Assembly: GCF_026712245.1 (NCBI RefSeq)
Contig: NZ_JAPPUY010000002.1
Span: forward strand, 434,001 to 498,000
Reading direction: 5' to 3'
From: Roseateles hydrophilus
Lineage (GTDB): Bacteria; Pseudomonadota; Gammaproteobacteria; Burkholderiales; Burkholderiaceae_C
Length of the DNA: 64,000 bases
The stretch's first letter is position 1; the number at the start of each line of letters is the position of its first letter. Positions 45,812 to 53,946 of this stretch are shown one piece after another. A program made the translations under genes and the position numbers. The notes beneath the pieces were generated by a model. That model worked only from the letters and a program-made list of their open reading frames with translations. It was not told where the DNA came from and made no database searches.

Positions 45812-46864
45812 ATGAAGCCCATCGCCTACACCCGCGCCAAGGACCTGCCCGCCACGCTGCAGCAACGCATCGCCATCCTCGATGGCGCGATGGGCACCAT
45901 GATCCAGCGCTACAAGCTCGGCGAGGCCGACTACCGCGGCGAGCGCTTCAAGGACCATGGCAAGGACCTGAAGGGCAACAACGAGCTGCTGCTGTTCACG
46001 CGGCCCGACGTCATCCGCGAGATCCACGAGCAGTACCTCGCGGCCGGCGCCGACCTCATCGAGACCAACACCTTCGGCGCCACGTCCGTCGCGCAGGAAG
46101 ACTACGACCTGCCCGAGCTGGCCTACGAGATGAACGTGGTTGCCGCGCAGATCGCCCGCCAGGCCTGCGACAAGTACTCGACGCCCGACAAGCCGCGCTA
46201 CGTGGCCGGCGCCCTCGGCCCCACGCCGCGCACCGCGTCCATCAGCCCGGACGTGAACGACCCCGGCGCCCGCAACATCGATTTCGACACGCTGCGCGAC
46301 GCCTACTACGAGCAGGCCAAGGGCCTGCTGGACGGCGGGGCCGACGTCTTCCTCATCGAAACCATCTTCGACACGCTGAACGCCAAGGCCGCCATCTTCG
46401 CGGTGGACCAGCTGATGGAAGACAGCGGCGAGCGCCTCCCCGTCATCATCTCGGGCACGGTGACGGACGCGTCCGGCCGCATCCTGTCGGGCCAGACGGT
46501 CACTGCCTTCTGGCACTCGGTGCGCCACGCGCGGCCCATCGCCATCGGCCTGAACTGCGCCTTGGGCGCCACGTTGATGCGGCCCTACATCGAGGAGCTG
46601 GCCAAGGTGGCGGGTGACGTGGCCGTCAGCTGCTACCCCAACGCCGGCCTGCCCAACCCGATGAGCGACACCGGCTTCGACGAGACGCCCGACGTCACCG
46701 CGCGGCTGGTGGGCGAGTTCGCGCAGGCCGGCTTCCTGAACATTGCCGGTGGCTGCTGCGGCACGACGCCCGACCACATCGCGGCCATTGCCAAGGCCGT
46801 GTCGGCCTACAAGCCGCGCATCAGCGGCGACCGCTTCTTCAGCAAGATGCTGGACGCTGCTTAG
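45812..46864 (+). CDS. metH: Homocysteine methyltransferase module of split methionine synthase
   Basis: A 350-residue protein equal to the first domain of MetH, the barrel that binds homocysteine and zinc. Motifs are [28 protein letters not shown] (first zinc Cys) and [14 protein letters not shown] (other two Cys). The folate, cobalamin and reactivation domains are missing, and the following gene is unrelated. In many Burkholderiales MetH is encoded as two genes; here the larger half is not adjacent. It cannot make methionine by the MetH route without that partner. Confidence 0.9.
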
Positions 46865-46917
46865 GTCGTTAGCATGCCGGCCGAGCCAGGGGCGTTCCCT
46901 GGCACCCGGGAGCTGGC

Positions 46918-47889
46918 ATGGATTGGCAGACGGTCGTCGCGCACCACGCGCGCACCCAGGGCTGGGACGAGGCGCGGCAGCGCAAGCTGCTCGCGCTAGA
47001 CGACCTGGGTCAGCCGCCCGCAGCGCTGCAGGCCCACGGGCCGCTGGCCCTGCTGGGGCTGGCCGGCCTGCTGGTCGGGCTGGGGCTGATCTTCACCGTC
47101 GCGGCGCAATGGGCTGAGTTGTCGCGGGCTCAGCAGTTCGCGCTGCTGCAGGCTGGCGTGGCGGCAGGTGCGCTGGGCGTCGTGGCCTGGCCGGGGCTGC
47201 GCATGCCGCTGGGGCTGCTGAGCCTGCTGGCCATGGGCGGCCTGCTGGCGTACTTCGGCCAGACCTACCAGACCGGCGCCGACCCCTGGCAGCTGTTCGC
47301 GCTGTGGGCCGCGCTGGGCCTGCCGCTGGCACTGGGCGTGCGGGCCGACACGCTGTGGAGCGCCTGGACGCTGGTGGCCGCGACGGCCATCGCCTTGTGG
47401 ATGGCCGCCCACACCGGCCACCGCTGGCGCGCCGATCCCGACGACCTGGCGGTCCACTTGATCGGCTGGAGCGCGGCGCTGGCTCTGGTGCTGGCGTTGG
47501 GCAGCACGCCGGGGCGGCGGCTGGGCGTGGGCCTGTGGGCGCGCCGGCTGGGCGCCACGCTCGCGGTCTTCCTGGTGACCAGCAGCGCCACCTGGGCGCT
47601 GTTCAGTCAGCGCCCGGCGCTGCAGGTGGTGCTGGCGCTGGCCGTGCTGGCGCTGGCGGCCTGGGCGGCGGCGCGGCCGGCGACGTTCGACCTGTTCACG
47701 CTGAGCGCGGCCGCGCTGGGCCTGAACGTGGTGCTGGTCGGCGGGCTGGGGCGCTGGTTGTTCCACGGTGCCACGGGCGGCAACGGGATGGGTGAGTTCC
47801 TGCTGCTGGGGCTGGTGGCTGCCGGCCTGCTGGCGGCGACGGTCAGCGGGGTGCTGCGCCTGGCGCGCCGCGCCGGGAGCGCTGCATGA
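46918..47889 (+). CDS. DUF2157 membrane protein
   Basis: A 323-residue inner-membrane protein with about nine hydrophobic segments after a short cytoplasmic N-terminus (residues 1-40). It matches DUF2157, a family usually paired with GDYXXLXY proteins as here. Function unknown. A hairpin without a T-run (GCCAGGG/CCCTGGC, 46885-46903) precedes it. Its stop overlaps the next start (ATGA). Confidence 0.82.
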   Translation: MDWQTVVAHHARTQGWDEARQRKLLALDDLGQPPAALQAHGPLALLGLAGLLVGLGLIFTVAAQWAELSRAQQFALLQAGVAAGALGVVAWPGLRMPLGLLSLLAMGGLLAYFGQTYQTGADPWQLFALWAALGLPLALGVRADTLWSAWTLVAATAIALWMAAHTGHRWRADPDDLAVHLIGWSAALALVLALGSTPGRRLGVGLWARRLGATLAVFLVTSSATWALFSQRPALQVVLALAVLALAAWAAARPATFDLFTLSAAALGLNVVLVGGLGRWLFHGATGGNGMGEFLLLGLVAAGLLAATVSGVLRLARRAGSAA

Positions 47890-49463
47890 GCGGCGATCGC
47901 GTCGAGGCGCTGTGGCGGCAGGCCCAGGCTCAGCAGCTGCTGCCGGCGGACGCCGTGTTGCCGCCGCCCGAGCCGGCGCGGCCCTGGCCGGTGGTGCTGC
48001 TGACGGCGCTGGGCGCCTGGTTGGCCGCCGTGCCGCTGGTGGCGGTGCTGGCGCTGGCCTTCGGTCCCTTGTTCCAGCATGGCGGCGCCTGGCTGGCCGG
48101 CGGGCTGCTGCTGGCCGTGGCGGGCGTGATCCTGCGTGCCGACGGCCTGCCGCTGTTCGTCGAGCAGCTGGCCGTGCCGCTGCTGCTGACGGGCGGCGCC
48201 AGCCTGGGCTTCGCGATGTTCCAGGACCTGCCCGACCCCGCCGCTGCCGGGCTGATCGGGGCGGTCGCGCTGCTGCTGGGCGTGCTGGTGCGGCCGCTGT
48301 GGCTCAAGGCCTGCCTGGCGGCCGCGGCGGCGCTGTTCTGCGCGGTGGCGATCGGCCGCCTGGTGTCGCCACGCGGTGCATGGCCGCTGCCGCGCCCGGA
48401 GTGGCTCGGCTGGCATGCCGGCGTGTTGATCTGGCTGATCGCGCAGCGCGCCTGCCGCCCCGTGAGCCTGCGCCCGGGCCGGTTGGCGCTGGCCACCGGT
48501 TGGGGCGCGATGACGCTGCTGGGCCTGGCCCTGTCCTCGGGCATGGCGCTGCTGACCAGCGGCACGCTGGGGCGCTGGGGCAGCACGCACGGCATGGCCT
48601 GGGCGGGCTGGGCGGGCGGCGTGTCGGCCCTGCTGGCACTGGCGGCCGCCGCCTGGCTGGGGCGTGCGTGGCCGCTGCTGCGCAGGCCGGGACCTCTGGG
48701 CGTGGCGCTGGTGCTGGCGGCGCTCGCGGGCTTCATGCCGGCGCTGGGCGCGGCGCTGCTGATGGGCGCCGTCTGCCTGGCCTGGGCGCGCTGGCGGCTG
48801 GCGGTGGTGGCCGCGCTGGCGGCGCTGTGGATCGTCGGCAGCTTCTACTACCAGCTCAGCTGGCCGCTGGCCACCAAGGCGGCGGTGCTGGCAGGCGCCG
48901 GCCTGCTGCTGGGCCTGCTGGCCTGGCCGGCCTGGCGGCGTGCAGCGCCGGGCCAGCCTCAGCCGCGCACAGCGCTGCGGCCTGCCCGCTGGGGCGCGGC
49001 CGTCAGCCTCGTGGCGGTGCTGGCCGTCGTCAACGTGGCCATCGTGCAGAAGGAGGCGCTGATCGCCGAGGGCCAGCCGGTGTTCCTGCCGCTGGCCCCG
49101 GTGGACCCGCGCTCGCTGATGCAGGGCGACTACATGGCGCTGAACTTCAGCCTGCCGGGCGGGTTGCGCGCGGTGGACAGCGGCGCGCTGGGCAGCGCCC
49201 GGCCGCAGGTGGTGGCGCGGCGGGATGCGCAAGGCGTGGCCCGCCTGACGCGTGTGCACGCCGGTGAGGCGCTGGCGGCGGACGAGCTGCTGATCGAACT
49301 GTCGCCCAGCGGTGGGCGCTGGACGGTGGTGAGCGATGCCTGGTTCTTCCGCGAGGGCGAGGAGCAGCGCTGGGCGGCCGCGCGCTTCGGCGAGTTCCGC
49401 GTCGCGCCGGACGGCCGGGCGCTGCTGGTCGGCCTGCGCGGCGCCGGCCTGTCCCGGTTGTGA
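47886..49463 (+). CDS. DUF4401-GDYXXLXY fused membrane protein
   Basis: A 525-residue protein. The N-terminal two-thirds is a DUF4401-type membrane region with about ten hydrophobic segments. The C-terminal part (from about residue 370) is a GDYXXLXY domain with the eponymous motif as GDYMALNF at about residue 414, probably periplasmic. In many genomes these are two genes. Translationally coupled to the DUF2157 gene, so the pair probably forms one membrane complex of unknown role. Confidence 0.82.
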   Translation: MSGDRVEALWRQAQAQQLLPADAVLPPPEPARPWPVVLLTALGAWLAAVPLVAVLALAFGPLFQHGGAWLAGGLLLAVAGVILRADGLPLFVEQLAVPLLLTGGASLGFAMFQDLPDPAAAGLIGAVALLLGVLVRPLWLKACLAAAAALFCAVAIGRLVSPRGAWPLPRPEWLGWHAGVLIWLIAQRACRPVSLRPGRLALATGWGAMTLLGLALSSGMALLTSGTLGRWGSTHGMAWAGWAGGVSALLALAAAAWLGRAWPLLRRPGPLGVALVLAALAGFMPALGAALLMGAVCLAWARWRLAVVAALAALWIVGSFYYQLSWPLATKAAVLAGAGLLLGLLAWPAWRRAAPGQPQPRTALRPARWGAAVSLVAVLAVVNVAIVQKEALIAEGQPVFLPLAPVDPRSLMQGDYMALNFSLPGGLRAVDSGALGSARPQVVARRDAQGVARLTRVHAGEALAADELLIELSPSGGRWTVVSDAWFFREGEEQRWAAARFGEFRVAPDGRALLVGLRGAGLSRL

Positions 49464-49521
49464 ATGCGTACGTTGACAAATGAATTCACGTGAATACATT
49501 TGCGTTCATTGGAGTTCATGA
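49461..49521 (+). promoter_or_regulatory. Promoter with tandem half-sites for the PspA-flotillin operon
   Basis: A consensus -35 TTGACA (49473-49478) and a -10 TACATT (49495-49500) are 16 bp apart. Around them lie TGAATTCA (49481-49488) and TGAATACA (49491-49498), exactly 10 bp apart, then GTTCAT at 49504-49509 and 49514-49519, again 10 bp apart in the opposite orientation. A further TGAAT is at 49461. Tandem half-sites one helical turn apart are typical of ribbon-helix-helix operators. Autoregulation by the first gene is inferred. Confidence 0.6.
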
Positions 49522-50039
49522 AGGCAGGTGGTCGCATGGCGACTCAGACCGTCACGATGGAGCCCTTGTCGGCGCGCATCCCCAGCGACCTCTACCTGTG
49601 GCTGGCCCAGCTGCAGGTGGAGGGCGCCACGACCAACAGCGACAAGCTGCGCGTGCTGCTGGGGCAGCTCAAGCGCCAGCACGATGGCGCGTTCGACTAT
49701 GTGGCCGCCCACGCCTGGGCGCGGGACCTGACGCACCGGCTGCGCGAGGCGCTGGTGCGCATCGAGGGCCAGGAGGGCCGGCATTCCGAGGTGCTGGGCG
49801 GGCTGGTGGAGCAGGTGGCGGCGCTGATGGCGCTGGTCATCAGCCATGCGCCGGCCACAGCCGAGGATGCCGCCCGGCTGGAAGACGCACTGGTTCGCCG
49901 TGCGGCGCTGCTGGGCGAGTCGCTGCTGCGGCAGGCGACGACCGGCGCCGCCCATGCCTTCGATCCGGGCGTGGTGCGCCGCCACCTGGCGACCACGGCC
50001 GAACTGGCCGCCACCCTGAAGACCCTGGAAGGAGCCTGA
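49518..50039 (+). CDS. Ribbon-helix-helix-like protein heading the PspA operon
   Basis: A 173-residue protein. Residues about 10-50 (VTMEPLSARIPSDLYLWLAQL, then TTNSDKLRVLLGQL) read as a beta strand plus two helices, the layout of CopG/MetJ-type ribbon-helix-helix domains. The remaining 120 residues are helical, rich in Ala, Leu and Glu, with no membrane segment. It may be a DNA-binding regulator or a cytoplasmic partner of PspA. GGAG at 49511-49514 is close to the ATG at 49518; the ATG at 49536 is an alternative start preceded by AGGTGG. The next gene starts one base after its stop. Confidence 0.6.
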   Translation: MKAGGRMATQTVTMEPLSARIPSDLYLWLAQLQVEGATTNSDKLRVLLGQLKRQHDGAFDYVAAHAWARDLTHRLREALVRIEGQEGRHSEVLGGLVEQVAALMALVISHAPATAEDAARLEDALVRRAALLGESLLRQATTGAAHAFDPGVVRRHLATTAELAATLKTLEGA

Positions 50040-50040
50040 G

Positions 50041-50706
50041 ATGGCCGAGTCCCTCAAGACCCGCGTGGGCCGCGTGATGGCCGGCGGCCTGCATGCGCTG
50101 CTGGACAAGATCGAGGACCTGCAGCCGCAGGCGGCGATGGAGCAGGCGCTGCGCGAGGCCGGTAGCGTCATCGACGAGGTGCGCCACGAGCTGGGCAGCG
50201 TCAGCGCCAACCGCCACCTCGCCCAGCAGCAGCATGCACGGCTGAATGCCAGCCACGAGGACCTGCGCGACCAGGTGGACCAGGCGCTGGCCGCCGGCCG
50301 CGACGACCTGGCCCGCGCGGCCGTGGCGCGGCAGATCGACATCGAGGCCCAGCTGCCCGTGCTGGAGGCGACGCTGGCCGAGCTGTCGCGTCAGGAGCAG
50401 GAGCTGCAGGGCTTCACCGCCGCGCTGCTGGCCCGGCAGCGCGAGATGCAGGAGGCGCTGGCGGCCTTTCGCCACAGCCGCGCGGCAGCAGCCTCCGCGG
50501 CCCAGCCGGCGGGCGCGTCGGCCGTGGAGCAGCGGCTGACGCAGGTGAGCGAGGCTTTCGAGCGCATCTACAAGCGCCAGACCGGCCTGCACGCGGCGCA
50601 GCCCGGCAGCGCGGCGCAGGAGGCGCAGCTGCGCGAGCTGGACGACCTGGTGCGTGAGCACCGCATCGCCGAGCGCCTGGCGCGGCTGAAGGCGGGGGAG
50701 CTCTGA
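50041..50706 (+). CDS. PspA/IM30 family protein
   Basis: A 221-residue coiled-coil protein of the PspA/Vipp1 (ESCRT-III-like) group that binds stressed inner membrane and helps keep it intact. The N-terminus MAESLKTRVGRVMAGGLHALLDKIED is the membrane-binding helix, and the rest is nearly all heptad-patterned helix. No pspF, pspB or pspC is adjacent, so control must differ from the E. coli phage-shock system. The start follows the previous stop by one base with AAGGAG ahead. Confidence 0.85.
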   Translation: MAESLKTRVGRVMAGGLHALLDKIEDLQPQAAMEQALREAGSVIDEVRHELGSVSANRHLAQQQHARLNASHEDLRDQVDQALAAGRDDLARAAVARQIDIEAQLPVLEATLAELSRQEQELQGFTAALLARQREMQEALAAFRHSRAAAASAAQPAGASAVEQRLTQVSEAFERIYKRQTGLHAAQPGSAAQEAQLRELDDLVREHRIAERLARLKAGEL

Positions 50707-50737
50707 GCATGCGCTGCGATCTCACCGGAGCTGCGTC

Positions 50738-51364
50738 ATGAACCTGTTCACCGCCCCCGAGACCTTGCCCTTCGGCGTGGCCGTGGCACTGATCGTGGCC
50801 GTGGCTCTGCTGGAAGGCCTGGGCATGCTGGTGGCGCTGAGCCCGAGCAATGCCATCGACGAGCTGCTGCCGCAGGCGATGCCCGAGTCGGGGCTGGACC
50901 GCGTGCTGGGCTGGCTGCACCTGGGTCGCGTGCCAGCGCTGGTGCTGCTGCTGCTTTTTCTGCTGGGCTATGCGTTGTTCGGCTATGCGCTGCAGAAGGT
51001 GGCGCTGAACCTGGCCGGCGGCTTCCTGCCGGCCTGGGTGGCTGGCTTGCTGGCGGTGCCGCCGGGCCTGGCCACGGTGCGCGGCCTGGGCAGCCTGGTG
51101 GCCCACATCGTGCCGCGCGACGAGACCAGCGCCGTCAGTGAGCAGTCGCTGGTGGGGCGGGCCGGCGTCGTCAGCGCGGGTGCGGCACGCCGCGGCCTGG
51201 CCGCGCAGGCGCGGGTGCGCGACGCCTTCGGCCGCATGCACTACCTGATGGTGGAGCCCGACCTGGACGACGACGTGTTCGAGGAAGGCGCGCAAATCCT
51301 CATCGTGCGCAAGCTGGGGCCGTTCTACCGCTGCATTGCCAACCCGCATCCCCACCTGATCTGA
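50738..51364 (+). CDS. YqiJ-like OB-fold inner-membrane protein
   Basis: A 208-residue protein with three hydrophobic segments (about residues 10-32, 65-88 and 92-112) and a C-terminal soluble OB-fold-like domain (about 125-205: SLVGRAGVVSAGAARRGLAAQARVRD in pieces, then YLMVEPD). This matches YqiJ/NfeD-type partners of flotillins. It sits directly upstream of the flotillin gene, the same order as E. coli yqiJ-yqiK. Confidence 0.82.
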   Translation: MNLFTAPETLPFGVAVALIVAVALLEGLGMLVALSPSNAIDELLPQAMPESGLDRVLGWLHLGRVPALVLLLLFLLGYALFGYALQKVALNLAGGFLPAWVAGLLAVPPGLATVRGLGSLVAHIVPRDETSAVSEQSLVGRAGVVSAGAARRGLAAQARVRDAFGRMHYLMVEPDLDDDVFEEGAQILIVRKLGPFYRCIANPHPHLI

Positions 51365-51388
51365 CCAACCTGGGAGTAGAAGCAAGAC

Positions 51389-53074
51389 ATGGACAACCTC
51401 ATCGAGATCTCCGCCATCGCCGGCATCGGCCTGCTGGGCCTGCTGACCATCGGCTTCGTCTTCGCGCGCCTGTACAAGCGCAGCACCAAGGAGACCGCCT
51501 TCGTGCGCACCGGCCTGGGCGGCCAGAAGGTCATCATGGACGGCGGCGCCATCGTGCTGCCGGTGTTCCACGAGCGCGTGCTGGTCAACATGAACACGCT
51601 CAAGCTCGAGGTGCAGCGCCGCGAGCGCGAGAGCCTCATCACCAAGGACCGCATGCGGGTGGACGTGACGGCGGCCTTCTTCGTGCGCGTGAAGCAGACC
51701 GAGGAGGCCGTGAGCACCGCCGCGCAGACGTTGGGTGCGCGCACCATGAGCCCGAACGAGCTCAAGGCGCTGGTGGAGGACAAGTTCGTCGACAGCCTGC
51801 GTGCCACGGCCGCCACCATGACCATCCAGGAGCTGCAGGACAAGCGCCGCGACTTCGTGCAGGCGGTGCAGAACGCCGTGGCCGAAGACCTGGAGAAGAA
51901 CGGCCTGGAGCTGGAGTCGGTGTCCCTCACCAGCCTGGACCAGACCGACAAGCAGTTCTTCAACCCGAACAACGCCTTCGACGCCGAGGGTCTGACGCGT
52001 CTGACCGAGCAGACCGAGGCGCGCCGCAAGCAGCGCAACGATGTCGAGCAGGACACCGAGGTGCAGGTGCGCACCAAGAACCTGGAGGCGTCGCGGGTCA
52101 AGCTCAATATCGAGAAAGACCAGGAGTTCGCGACCTTGTCGCAGCAGCGCGAGATCGAGACAGCCCGCGCCGAGCAGATCGCGCTGATCGCCGCTCAGCA
52201 GGCCGAGCGCGGCCGCGAGGCCGAGACGGTGAAGATCGAGGCCGAGCGCCAGGTGGGCCAGCGCCGCATCGAGGCCGAGCGCGAGATCAAGGCGGCCGAA
52301 ATCGAGAAGAACCTCGTCATCCAGACGCGCGAGATCGAGCAGGAGCGCCAGGCTGAGCTCAAGCGCGCCGAGCAGCGCAAGCAGGTGGAGATTGCGCGCC
52401 AGGACACGCAGATTGCGATCGCGACCAAGTCGCGCGAGCAGTCCGAGGCCGACGCGGCCGCCAACCTGGCCCGCGCCGAAGCCGTGAAGGCCGAGGAGAC
52501 CGTCAACACTGCGCGCCAGGTGGCCGTGGCCGAGCGGGACAAGGCCATCCAGCTGATCGAGGCCAGCAAGGACGCCGAGCAGAACGCGATTGCGGTGAAG
52601 GTGTCGGCCTCTGCCGAGAAGGAGGCCGCCATCGACCGCGCCGAGGCGCTGACGATCGAGGCCAAGGCCAAGCAGGCCGCCGCGATGGCCGAGGCTGAAG
52701 GCCGCCGTGCGATCAACGAGGCGCTGAACACGCTGTCCGTCGCGCAGATCGACCTGCAGGTGCGCACCCAGCTGCTGCAGCAGCTGCCCGCCATCCTGGC
52801 CCAGGCCGTCAAGCCCATGGAGCAGATCGACTCCATCCGCATCGTGTCGGTGAACGGCATGCCCGGCCAGGGCGGCAGCGGGGCGGGCGAGGGCGGCGCG
52901 GCGAACGGCGCCACCTTTCCCGAACAGGTCATGAACTCGGCGCTGCAGTACCAGATCGCCAAGCCCATCGTCGACGCCGTCATGCAGGACGCCGGCCTGT
53001 CCAACCAGGGCATCACCGGCATGGCGCAGAACCTGGCCGACATGCTCAAGCCCGCGGCGGCGCCGTCAGCCTGA
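51389..53074 (+). CDS. Flotillin family protein (YqiK-like)
   Basis: A 561-residue membrane-scaffold protein. An N-terminal membrane segment (about 8-28) is followed by an SPFH domain (about 35-210) and a long Glu/Ala-rich coiled coil (about 215-470). The Gly-rich C-terminus ends in a hydrophobic-amphipathic stretch. Such proteins organise membrane microdomains and often pair with NfeD/YqiJ proteins. The upstream PspA gene suggests a joint role in membrane-fluidity or envelope stress. A terminator follows. Confidence 0.92.
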   Translation: MDNLIEISAIAGIGLLGLLTIGFVFARLYKRSTKETAFVRTGLGGQKVIMDGGAIVLPVFHERVLVNMNTLKLEVQRRERESLITKDRMRVDVTAAFFVRVKQTEEAVSTAAQTLGARTMSPNELKALVEDKFVDSLRATAATMTIQELQDKRRDFVQAVQNAVAEDLEKNGLELESVSLTSLDQTDKQFFNPNNAFDAEGLTRLTEQTEARRKQRNDVEQDTEVQVRTKNLEASRVKLNIEKDQEFATLSQQREIETARAEQIALIAAQQAERGREAETVKIEAERQVGQRRIEAEREIKAAEIEKNLVIQTREIEQERQAELKRAEQRKQVEIARQDTQIAIATKSREQSEADAAANLARAEAVKAEETVNTARQVAVAERDKAIQLIEASKDAEQNAIAVKVSASAEKEAAIDRAEALTIEAKAKQAAAMAEAEGRRAINEALNTLSVAQIDLQVRTQLLQQLPAILAQAVKPMEQIDSIRIVSVNGMPGQGGSGAGEGGAANGATFPEQVMNSALQYQIAKPIVDAVMQDAGLSNQGITGMAQNLADMLKPAAAPSA

Positions 53075-53092
53075 CGCTGCCGCGCGCCCAAC

Positions 53093-53125
53093 AAAAAAGG
53101 CCTGCTGGATCAGCAGGCCTTCTTT
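53093..53125. terminator. Bidirectional terminator between flotillin and bfr
   Basis: Stem AAGGCCTGCTG (53097-53107) with CAGCAGGCCTT (53111-53121), loop GAT. It is flanked by an A-run on the left and a T-rich stretch on the right, so it can serve both converging genes. Confidence 0.92.
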
Positions 53126-53140
53126 GCGTCGCCGTCCGGC

Positions 53141-53617
53141 TCAGCTGGCGTCGCCCATCTGCGACTGCAGGTAGTTCTGTGCGCCCACCGTCTGCACCAG
53201 CGCGAGCTGGGTTTCCAGGTAGTCGATGTGCTCCTCGGTGTCGTCCAGGATCTGCACGAACAGCTCGCGGGACACATAGTCGCGCACGCTCTCGCAGTAG
53301 GCGACCGCCTCCTTCAGGTGGGCATGACCGGTCTTCTCGATCTTCAGGTCGCACTCCATCGTCTCGACGGCGTTCTCGCCGATGTAGAGCTTGCCGAGGT
53401 CCTGCAGGTTGGGCAGGCCTTCCAGTGTCAGCACGCGCTCGATGAGCTTGTCGGCGTGCTTCATCTCCTCGATGGACTCCTCGTACTCGTGCTTGGCCAT
53501 CTTCATCAGGCCCCAGTTCTTCAGCATGCGGGCGTGCAGGAAGTACTGATTGATGGCGGTCAGCTCCAGCTTGAGCTGGGCGTTCAGGTGAGCAATGACT
53601 TGCGGGTCGCCTTGCAT
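53141..53617 (-). CDS. bfr: Bacterioferritin
   Basis: A 158-residue haem-containing iron-storage protein that forms 24-mers. Ferroxidase ligands E18, E51 and H54 and the haem ligand M52 fall at the canonical positions when translation starts at 53617 ([14 protein letters not shown]). The later ligands in [13 protein letters not shown] are also present. It diverges from bfd across a candidate Fur box. Confidence 0.96.
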
Positions 53618-53692
53618 GGTGGGGCTCCAGGTTCGTGAATTCGGAGCGAAGTATCGCGAGCCAAAGCCCCACAGCAAAACCGCTCTTTGTGC

Positions 53693-53713
53693 AAATAAGA
53701 TCGATTCGCATTA
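53693..53713. promoter_or_regulatory. Candidate Fur box in the bfr-bfd intergenic region
   Basis: AAATAAGATCGATTCGCATT plus one base agrees at about 15 of 21 positions with the common Fur-box pattern AAATGAGAATCATTCTCATT. It overlaps TAGAAT (53712-53717), the likely bfd -10, so bound Fur would block bfd. A short palindrome CGCATT/AATGCG (53707-53720) overlaps it. Assigned by eye. Confidence 0.5.
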
Positions 53714-53724
53714 GAATGCGCAGC

Positions 53725-53946
53725 ATGATTGTCTGTGTCTGCCATCGCGTCTCCGACCGCGACATCGCCATTGCGGCGTCGTCGGGCTGCCCGAGCTTCG
53801 AGGCCCTGCAGGACGACCTGCGCGTGGCCACGGCCTGTGGCGCCTGCCGCGATTGCGCCTGCGAGGTGTTCGAGGAAAGCCGCATCAAGGGCGGCGCCCG
53901 CGCGCACGGCGGGCCGGTGCCGGTGGCCATGCTGATGCCCGTCTGA
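53725..53946 (+). CDS. bfd: Bacterioferritin-associated ferredoxin
   Basis: A 73-residue [2Fe-2S] protein that reduces the bacterioferritin haem to release stored iron. The four cluster cysteines are C4 and C6 (MIVCVCHRVSD) and C38 and C41 (ACGACRDC), at the expected spacing. No Shine-Dalgarno is visible and TAGAAT lies only eight bases ahead, so the transcript may be almost leaderless. Iron-starvation induction through Fur is the family norm. Confidence 0.94.
   Translation: MIVCVCHRVSDRDIAIAASSGCPSFEALQDDLRVATACGACRDCACEVFEESRIKGGARAHGGPVPVAMLMPV

What the first reader, a model, noticed from the sequence alone, without database searches (positions are those of the whole stretch)
49461..53074. 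PspA-YqiJ-flotillin membrane-stress operon headed by a ribbon-helix-helix-like gene with tandem half-sites
Four tightly spaced genes join a PspA/IM30 protein, a YqiJ-like OB-fold protein and a flotillin with a 173-residue protein whose N-terminus reads as a ribbon-helix-helix domain. A TTGACA/TACATT promoter is overlaid by TGAATxCA repeated at 10 bp and GTTCAT repeated at 10 bp in the opposite direction. No PspF/sigma-54 or PspC is present. This looks like a self-contained, autoregulated membrane-protection system with a different control logic from the classical Psp response.
Basis: partly seen in the sequence, partly recalled or inferred. Interest (0 to 1): 0.72.

Follow-up and report, generated by a model that had tools for sequence, protein, structure and literature searches.

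The report
Self-regulated PspA-flotillin membrane-stress operon
This is a four-gene operon for membrane maintenance, headed by an unnamed protein that probably binds DNA and shuts off its own promoter by sitting on a row of evenly spaced 10-base sites kept in many related bacteria; the membrane genes are a known set, the switch looks undescribed.

Summary
Window 49473-53074 carries a sigma-70-type promoter and four same-strand genes: a regulator, a PspA/IM30 protein, YqiJ and a flotillin. In-frame stops in relatives put the regulator's start at 49536 (167 aa), not 49518. The "half-sites" are tandem 10-bp quasi-palindromic boxes (49480-49519; WYGNATNCRW; the fourth weak) over the -35/-10 spacer, the -10 and the expected start site. 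Box pairs 10 bp apart occur in 54 of 57 upstream regions, the window's included, and in 4 of the 5 most distant (25-30% identical regulators). Lag-10 self-similarity is z=17.1 in 42 regions, 5.0 in those five. The double box occurs once in the 4.77-Mb genome. The ribbon-helix-helix (RHH) call gets no support from Pfam, PDB-sequence or Foldseek searches, but profile-profile comparison gives it: hhalign 88.5%, score 29.0, 0 of 200 shuffles above 16.5. Every relative whose contig continues has pspA next. The PspA-YqiJ-flotillin core is published (PMC11237479) and resembles the Pseudomonas bac operon; this head gene and operator were not found in print. Best reading: autorepression by a dedicated RHH protein. 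DNA binding, sign of control and stress signal are inferred. New variant of a known kind.

The parts
49473..49478 (+). -35 hexamer TTGACA; 44 of 52 aligned upstream regions begin TTGAC or TTGTC here
49495..49500 (+). -10 hexamer TACATT, 16-bp spacer
49480..49489 (+). operator box 1 ATGAATTCAC, inside the -35/-10 spacer
49490..49499 (+). operator box 2 GTGAATACAT, over the -10
49500..49509 (+). operator box 3 TTGCGTTCAT, over the expected transcription start
49510..49519 (+). operator box 4 TGGAGTTCAT, weak (below the 7-of-8 threshold)
   Evidence: sequence; not in the box list
49536..50039 (+). regulator gene (167 aa): N-terminal RHH-like domain (residues about 8-50) plus C-terminal helical domain (about 55-165)
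50041..50706 (+). PspA/IM30 family gene (221 aa), 1 nt after the regulator stop
50738..51364 (+). YqiJ family membrane protein with OB-fold domain (208 aa)
51389..53074 (+). flotillin, YqiK type (561 aa; 53% identical to E. coli YqiK)
53097..53121 (.). hairpin with an 11-bp perfect stem between the operon and the convergent bfr gene, probable terminator (A-run on its left, short T-rich tail on its right)
   Evidence: read from sequence; not in the list of the scan

Best explanation
A dedicated local regulator controls a PspA-YqiJ-flotillin membrane-maintenance operon. Its N-terminal domain is an RHH dimer domain. Dimers bind tandem 10-bp quasi-palindromic boxes, one per DNA turn and so on one face, from the -35/-10 spacer to the transcription start, and block RNA polymerase: negative autoregulation of the whole operon. 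The C-terminal helical domain is probably the signal input; release of the repressor during membrane stress, perhaps by contact with PspA or the flotillin/YqiJ complex, would raise PspA (membrane binding and repair) and flotillin/YqiJ (microdomain scaffold). Shown here: gene order, promoter, operator conservation, a single operator in the own genome, profile-level RHH homology, absence of the operator in six loci without the regulator. Inferred: DNA binding, repression, the signal, the physiology.
For: Gene order: of 49 orthologue loci, 46 have all four genes in order; the other 3 (L049, L062, L063) are cut by contig ends. Five distant homologues (25-30% identity) also sit directly before pspA, with YqiJ in 4 of 5 (in L118 the contig ends about 320 nt after pspA) and flotillin in the 3 for which enough sequence was taken. 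Regulator in 12 of 200 family genomes, the own one included, after setting aside a spurious 13th hit (G175/L014); all 12 have pspA and YqiJ beside it. Operator: lag-10 z=17.1 for 42 upstream regions, 5.0 for the five distant ones; box pairs at 10 bp in 54 of 57; box G and C at 91-100% in 44 aligned promoters. Specificity: double box once in the own genome, control pattern none; no pair before 3 PspA-YqiJ-flotillin operons and 3 YqiJ-flotillin loci in which the regulator is absent by HMM search, nor before E. coli yqiJ, yjfI or pspA. RHH: hhalign 88.5%, P 2.7e-6, 44 columns, score 29.0 against a shuffled maximum of 16.5; with the wider RHH profile 29.5, against a maximum of 15.7 for 64 segments of these protein families. 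The predicted DNA-binding part is the conserved part: 92% against 68% mean column identity in 35 sequences. Boxes overlie the only promoter found.
Against: No Pfam, NCBIfam or PDB-sequence match identifies the domain as RHH; two sub-threshold Pfam matches touch RHH or unknown families (MatP_C in L067, E 0.023 and in the C-terminal half; DUF6290 in L119, E 0.062) and count for nothing. AlphaFold monomers put a short helix where the strand should be, mean pLDDT 90 for the N-terminal model; Foldseek has no significant match. Single-sequence hhalign is weak for Arc (P 0.005) and NikR (0.01), negative for Mnt and MetJ. L047, L052 and L118 lack the box pair; L052 and the related L056 have a different upstream although their RHH segment is nearly unchanged. 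Three of five PspA-YqiJ-flotillin operons in the class sample lack the regulator. Nothing tests a PspA-regulator contact or any stress signal. The box pattern was drawn from the near relatives; only the lag test and the five distant loci are free of that.
Confidence: 0.72

Rival explanations
1. The head protein is a cytosolic partner or chaperone of PspA, like BacA/YjfI (DUF2170, CesT/Tir fold) in the Pseudomonas bac operon, and the boxes belong to another, unlinked regulator.
For: Same position before pspA as BacA, whose loss raises the Bac proteins (abstract and passages of PMC10948618). Adjacency to pspA in every locus that could show it. C-terminal helical domain.
Against: No DUF2170 match and no BLAST match to YjfI; all-helical C-terminal model. 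The boxes follow the regulator: absent in 6 loci with YqiJ-flotillin but without it, and single in the genome, as expected of a local regulator rather than a global one. N-terminus aligns with RHH_1.
Confidence: 0.13
2. The protein binds the boxes but activates, or only sets the basal level, with no stress input (a plain homeostatic loop).
For: Negative autoregulation alone can stabilise expression; no sensor motif was recognised in the C-terminal domain.
Against: The C-terminal domain (about 110 residues) is kept down to 25-30% identity with invariant residues, more than a simple repressor needs. Boxes lie on the -10 and the start, where bound protein usually represses rather than activates (general knowledge).
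Confidence: 0.12
3. The repeats are only a conserved promoter, no operator.
For: The repeats overlap the -10, which is conserved anyway.
Against: The spacer and the post-start bases are conserved with G and C exactly 10 bp apart; a plain spacer should not be. Lag 10 and its multiple 20 stand far above all other lags (the next, lag 5, z=5.0), and in the five distant loci only lag 10 stands out, z=5.0.
Confidence: 0.03

Closest known systems
bac operon of Pseudomonas aeruginosa (bacABCDEF; PMC10948618 abstract and passages, PMC2587700 passages)
   Same: Head gene followed directly by a pspA homologue; the cluster PA14_16140-16180 includes PA14_16160 (short NfeD) and PA14_16180 (SPFH protein PaFlo3) per PMC13086221 passages; loss of the head gene raises the other proteins; PspA homologue induced by osmotic shock.
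   Different: Head gene is DUF2170/YjfI (T3SS-chaperone-like fold), not the protein here; the promoter proposed there is sigma-54 type, here sigma-70-like with tandem boxes; six genes there.
CesT/Tir-PspA-flotillin-AAA+-YqiJ operons (PMC11237479, section 19 read)
   Same: PspA, flotillin and YqiJ/YuaF-type proteins encoded together.
   Different: A CesT/Tir gene and an AAA+ ATPase there, neither among the four genes here; that section reports an RHH gene only as the last gene of a different, spermine-synthase group.
E. coli yqiJ-yqiK
   Same: YqiJ and flotillin order; window proteins 29% and 53% identical.
   Different: No pspA or regulator upstream of yqiJ in the stretch fetched (starts 208 nt before yqiJ); no box pair there. 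That yqiJ-yqiK stand alone is also said in PMC2636767 passages.
E. coli pspF-pspABCDE
   Same: PspA/IM30 family protein (25% identity), a dedicated local regulator.
   Different: No PspF over cut-off in the genome, no PspB or PspC in the operon, sigma-70-like promoter.
RHH repressors with arrayed operators (Arc, MetJ, CopG; operator geometry recalled, not looked up)
   Same: Profile-level similarity to RHH_1; short repeated palindromic sites over the own promoter.
   Different: 10-bp box and period, long helical C-terminal domain, no match to their Pfam families.

Membership tests
Ribbon-helix-helix superfamily | strand-helix-helix sequence homology | tested here: met
   hhalign to an RHH_1 profile (13 loci plus NikR): 88.5%, score 29.0, 0 of 200 column shuffles reach it; at most 15.7 for 64 other segments against the wider RHH profile
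Ribbon-helix-helix superfamily | match to a curated RHH family model | tested here: not met
Ribbon-helix-helix superfamily | intertwined dimer with a two-stranded sheet | tested here: inconclusive
   monomer models only: both helices, short helix instead of strand, no Foldseek match
Ribbon-helix-helix superfamily | sequence-specific DNA binding | not testable with these tools
   conserved boxes are indirect evidence only
PspA/IM30 | PF04012 over its cut-off | tested here: met
   54.9 bits, cut-off 33.9
PspA/IM30 | classical PspA (TIGR02977 equivalog) | tested here: not met
   36.5 bits, cut-off 242.95
Classical Psp system | PspF activator | tested here: not met
   none over cut-off in the genome
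Classical Psp system | PspB/PspC encoded in the operon | tested here: not met
   the four genes match other families or none; one PspC elsewhere in the genome; PspB not searched in the genome
YqiJ | PF21001 and PF07290 over cut-off | tested here: met
Flotillin | PF15975 and PF01145 over cut-off | tested here: met
   the FloT equivalog NF058507 is not reached (73 bits, cut-off 700)
bac operon | DUF2170/YjfI head gene | tested here: not met
   no Pfam match, no BLAST match to YjfI
bac operon | sigma-54 promoter | not tested
   a sigma-70-type promoter was found; no -24/-12 scan was run

The most novel reading that the evidence does not exclude
A Psp-type response with inverted logic: an RHH repressor whose helical C-terminal domain reads the assembly or membrane state of PspA (ESCRT-III-like) or the flotillin ring, so that membrane recruitment of the structural proteins pulls the repressor off a one-face array of 10-bp boxes. 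This would be an uncatalogued regulator family kept from Burkholderiales to distant members of the phylum.
Probability: 0.25. Interest if true: 0.72.

Novelty: new variant of a known kind. Interest (0 to 1): 0.5.

Why it matters
Many PspA proteins lie outside the PspF circuit (PMC11237479, PMC10948618 passages) and how they are controlled is largely open. This names a candidate dedicated regulator family, its operator, its start codon and a simple reporter test, and offers a compact system in which PspA, YqiJ and flotillin are probably made from one regulated transcript.

Tried and rejected
Tried without gain: Pfam, NCBIfam, PHROGs and PDB-sequence searches for the regulator. The two best PDB matches (Ika8, Ika4; E 2.2e-7 and 0.0018) come from internally repeated chains whose single repeats score E 2 or worse, and start at residue 27; set aside. 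phrog_3335 (E 0.0016 for the window segment, 4 of 12 members) has no named function and was not matched by Arc, Mnt, MetJ or NikR, so it proves nothing. Foldseek on both models: nothing. Phage search with the N-terminus: one chance hit, E 7.

Rejected: the 49518 start; a wider regulon with the same double box (it occurs once; single boxes elsewhere were not counted); the neighbouring bfr/bfd genes as part of the system (no match in 47 other loci examined, which hold only about 2 kb beyond the flotillin in most cases; the queries do find their own genes); the upstream DUF2157/DUF4401 pair as part of the operon (besides the window, directly adjacent in L018 and about 1.5 kb away in L021 only); G175/L014 as an orthologue (E 7.7e-4, no operon gene found there). 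A claim that PspA-YqiJ-flotillin operons always carry this regulator is false: 3 of 5 in the class sample lack it.

Rows dropped before counts: eight upstream regions identical to another and the second window copy; L062 (too short upstream); 57 regions reduced to 42 by 6-mer similarity; 52 aligned promoters reduced to the 44 that begin TTGAC or TTGTC for the column table. Whole-genome searches with A1 and A2 scored at most 9 candidates per genome, so their counts are lower bounds.

Full report
What is there. The window lies in a 4.77-Mb genome; its closest regulator relatives in public genomes are from Pelomonas and Roseateles. Four genes run on the plus strand: regulator 49536-50039, PspA/IM30 50041-50706, YqiJ 50738-51364, flotillin 51389-53074, with gaps of 1, 31 and 24 nt. 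The only promoter-like site found in 46800-53800 is TTGACA-16-TACATT at 49473-49500. A hairpin at 53097-53121 separates the operon from the convergent bfr gene (sequence).

Start codon. Of 61 upstream rows (the window twice, some loci held twice), 11, or 10 distinct, have an in-frame stop within the six codons before the codon equivalent to 49536: L003/L015, L004, L016, L017, L019, L020, L028, L029, L038, L042.

Operator. The general box is WYGNATNCRW, a quasi-palindrome; the fourth box of the window fits it poorly. A test that assumes no motif, best self-match at each lag against dinucleotide shuffles, gives z=17.1 at lag 10 and 11.2 at lag 20 for 42 dereplicated regions; the next is lag 5 (z=5.0), which a palindromic box of this size may itself produce. 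For the five distant loci alone only lag 10 stands out (z=5.0; the next 1.3). With the box pattern, 39 of 42 dereplicated and 54 of 57 regions have a pair exactly 10 bp apart; shuffles give a mean of 0.16 of 42; control segments 600-750 nt upstream give 0 of 42. Misses: L047, L052, L118. L056 is counted as a hit although its upstream looks different from the rest. In 44 promoters beginning TTGAC or TTGTC, the box G is at 98, 100 and 91% and the box C at 98, 100 and 93% for boxes 1-3. The box pattern came from the near relatives, so for them the pair count is partly circular.

Dedicated control. A degenerate double-box pattern occurs once in the own genome, here, and its control pattern nowhere. 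The array is absent before three PspA-YqiJ-flotillin operons and three YqiJ-flotillin loci in which an HMM of the regulator finds nothing (E 0.2 or worse, against E 1e-62 or better in four loci that have it), and before E. coli yqiJ, yjfI and pspA.

Gene context. Of 49 loci in public genomes, 46 have the four genes in order and three are cut by contig ends. In 200 genomes of the family, 12 have the regulator, the own one included (a 13th hit, L014, is spurious), 15 have YqiJ over cut-off and 23 have PspA over cut-off; all 12 regulator genomes carry both next to it. Two of the three other YqiJ genomes have YqiJ-flotillin without PspA beside it; the third is a marginal match with no operon gene found. 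G030 of the same genus has none of the three. Wider searches found the regulator in 2 of 368 other class genomes and 3 of 397 other phylum genomes, lower bounds since few candidates per genome were scored; all five are directly before pspA. In the class sample (339 genomes), five PspA-YqiJ-flotillin operons were seen: two with the regulator (the own one and G280) and three without (L127-L129). So the regulator is one of several ways to head this gene set.

Is it RHH? Against: no library match, monomer models with a short helix at the LSAR stretch, no Foldseek match, weak or no single-sequence hhalign match to four known RHH proteins. For: the 50-residue N-terminal profile of 40 sequences aligns over 44 columns, with one single-residue insertion, to an RHH_1 profile made from 13 loci of related genomes and NikR: 88.5% probability, score 29.0; 200 column shuffles reach at most 16.5 and the reversed profile 8.2. 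With Arc and Mnt added to the RHH profile the score is 29.5 (shuffles at most 15.2), and 64 segments of the same operon's protein families reach at most 15.7 against it. I take RHH as likely, about 85% (judgement).

How it probably works. RHH dimers on boxes one helical turn apart would line one face of the DNA over the promoter and repress the operon. This follows from position and general knowledge of RHH repressors; it was not measured. The C-terminal helical domain has invariant residues even among relatives at 23-30% identity and is the natural input site; PspA, its constant neighbour, is the first candidate partner. That step is conjecture.

Against what is known. The PspA-flotillin-YqiJ association is published (PMC11237479, section 19 read), where the RHH gene mentioned is the last gene of a different group. 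The Pseudomonas bac operon has a similar layout with a DUF2170 head that behaves as a negative regulator (PMC10948618 abstract and passages; PMC2587700 passages). Literature searches for PspA with YqiJ and flotillin, PspA with flotillin and RHH, RHH with phage shock protein, RHH with PspA, DUF1449 with PspA, and RHH with 10-bp direct-repeat operators list nothing whose title or abstract start reports this head gene or operator; apart from PMC11237479 the papers were seen as listings only, the library holds open-licence papers only, and supplements were not read. The orthologue on a Vitreoscilla filiformis plasmid record is annotated 'hypothetical protein'.

Verdict. A real, conserved, dedicated and probably autoregulatory unit on a known gene set: a new variant of a known kind, of moderate interest.

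Noticed in passing
window 53141-53946: A bacterioferritin-like gene (minus strand) and a Bfd-like gene lie just downstream; neither was found in 47 other loci examined (positive control), so the adjacency is probably chance. Names are from sequence resemblance, no family search was run.
   Followed up: yes
window 46918-49463: A DUF2157 gene and a DUF4401/GDYXXLXY membrane gene run up to the operon's promoter region on the same strand; besides the window directly adjacent in L018 only.
   Followed up: partly
L052 and L056, upstream of 5001: Two MAG relatives keep a nearly unchanged DNA-binding segment but have a different upstream with ATGTATGCATATG-like sequence instead of the usual array.
   Followed up: no
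G000 contig C6:144417-144587: A PspC-domain gene about 340 kb away in the same genome; its context was not examined.
   Followed up: no
window 49554-49694: Weak match of the N-terminus to phrog_3335, a 56-position phage family of unknown function (E 0.0016).
   Followed up: partly
L128, around 1197-2264: In one class-level PspA-YqiJ-flotillin locus without the regulator, a gene that by eye resembles a second SPFH/band-7 protein lies before pspA.
   Followed up: no
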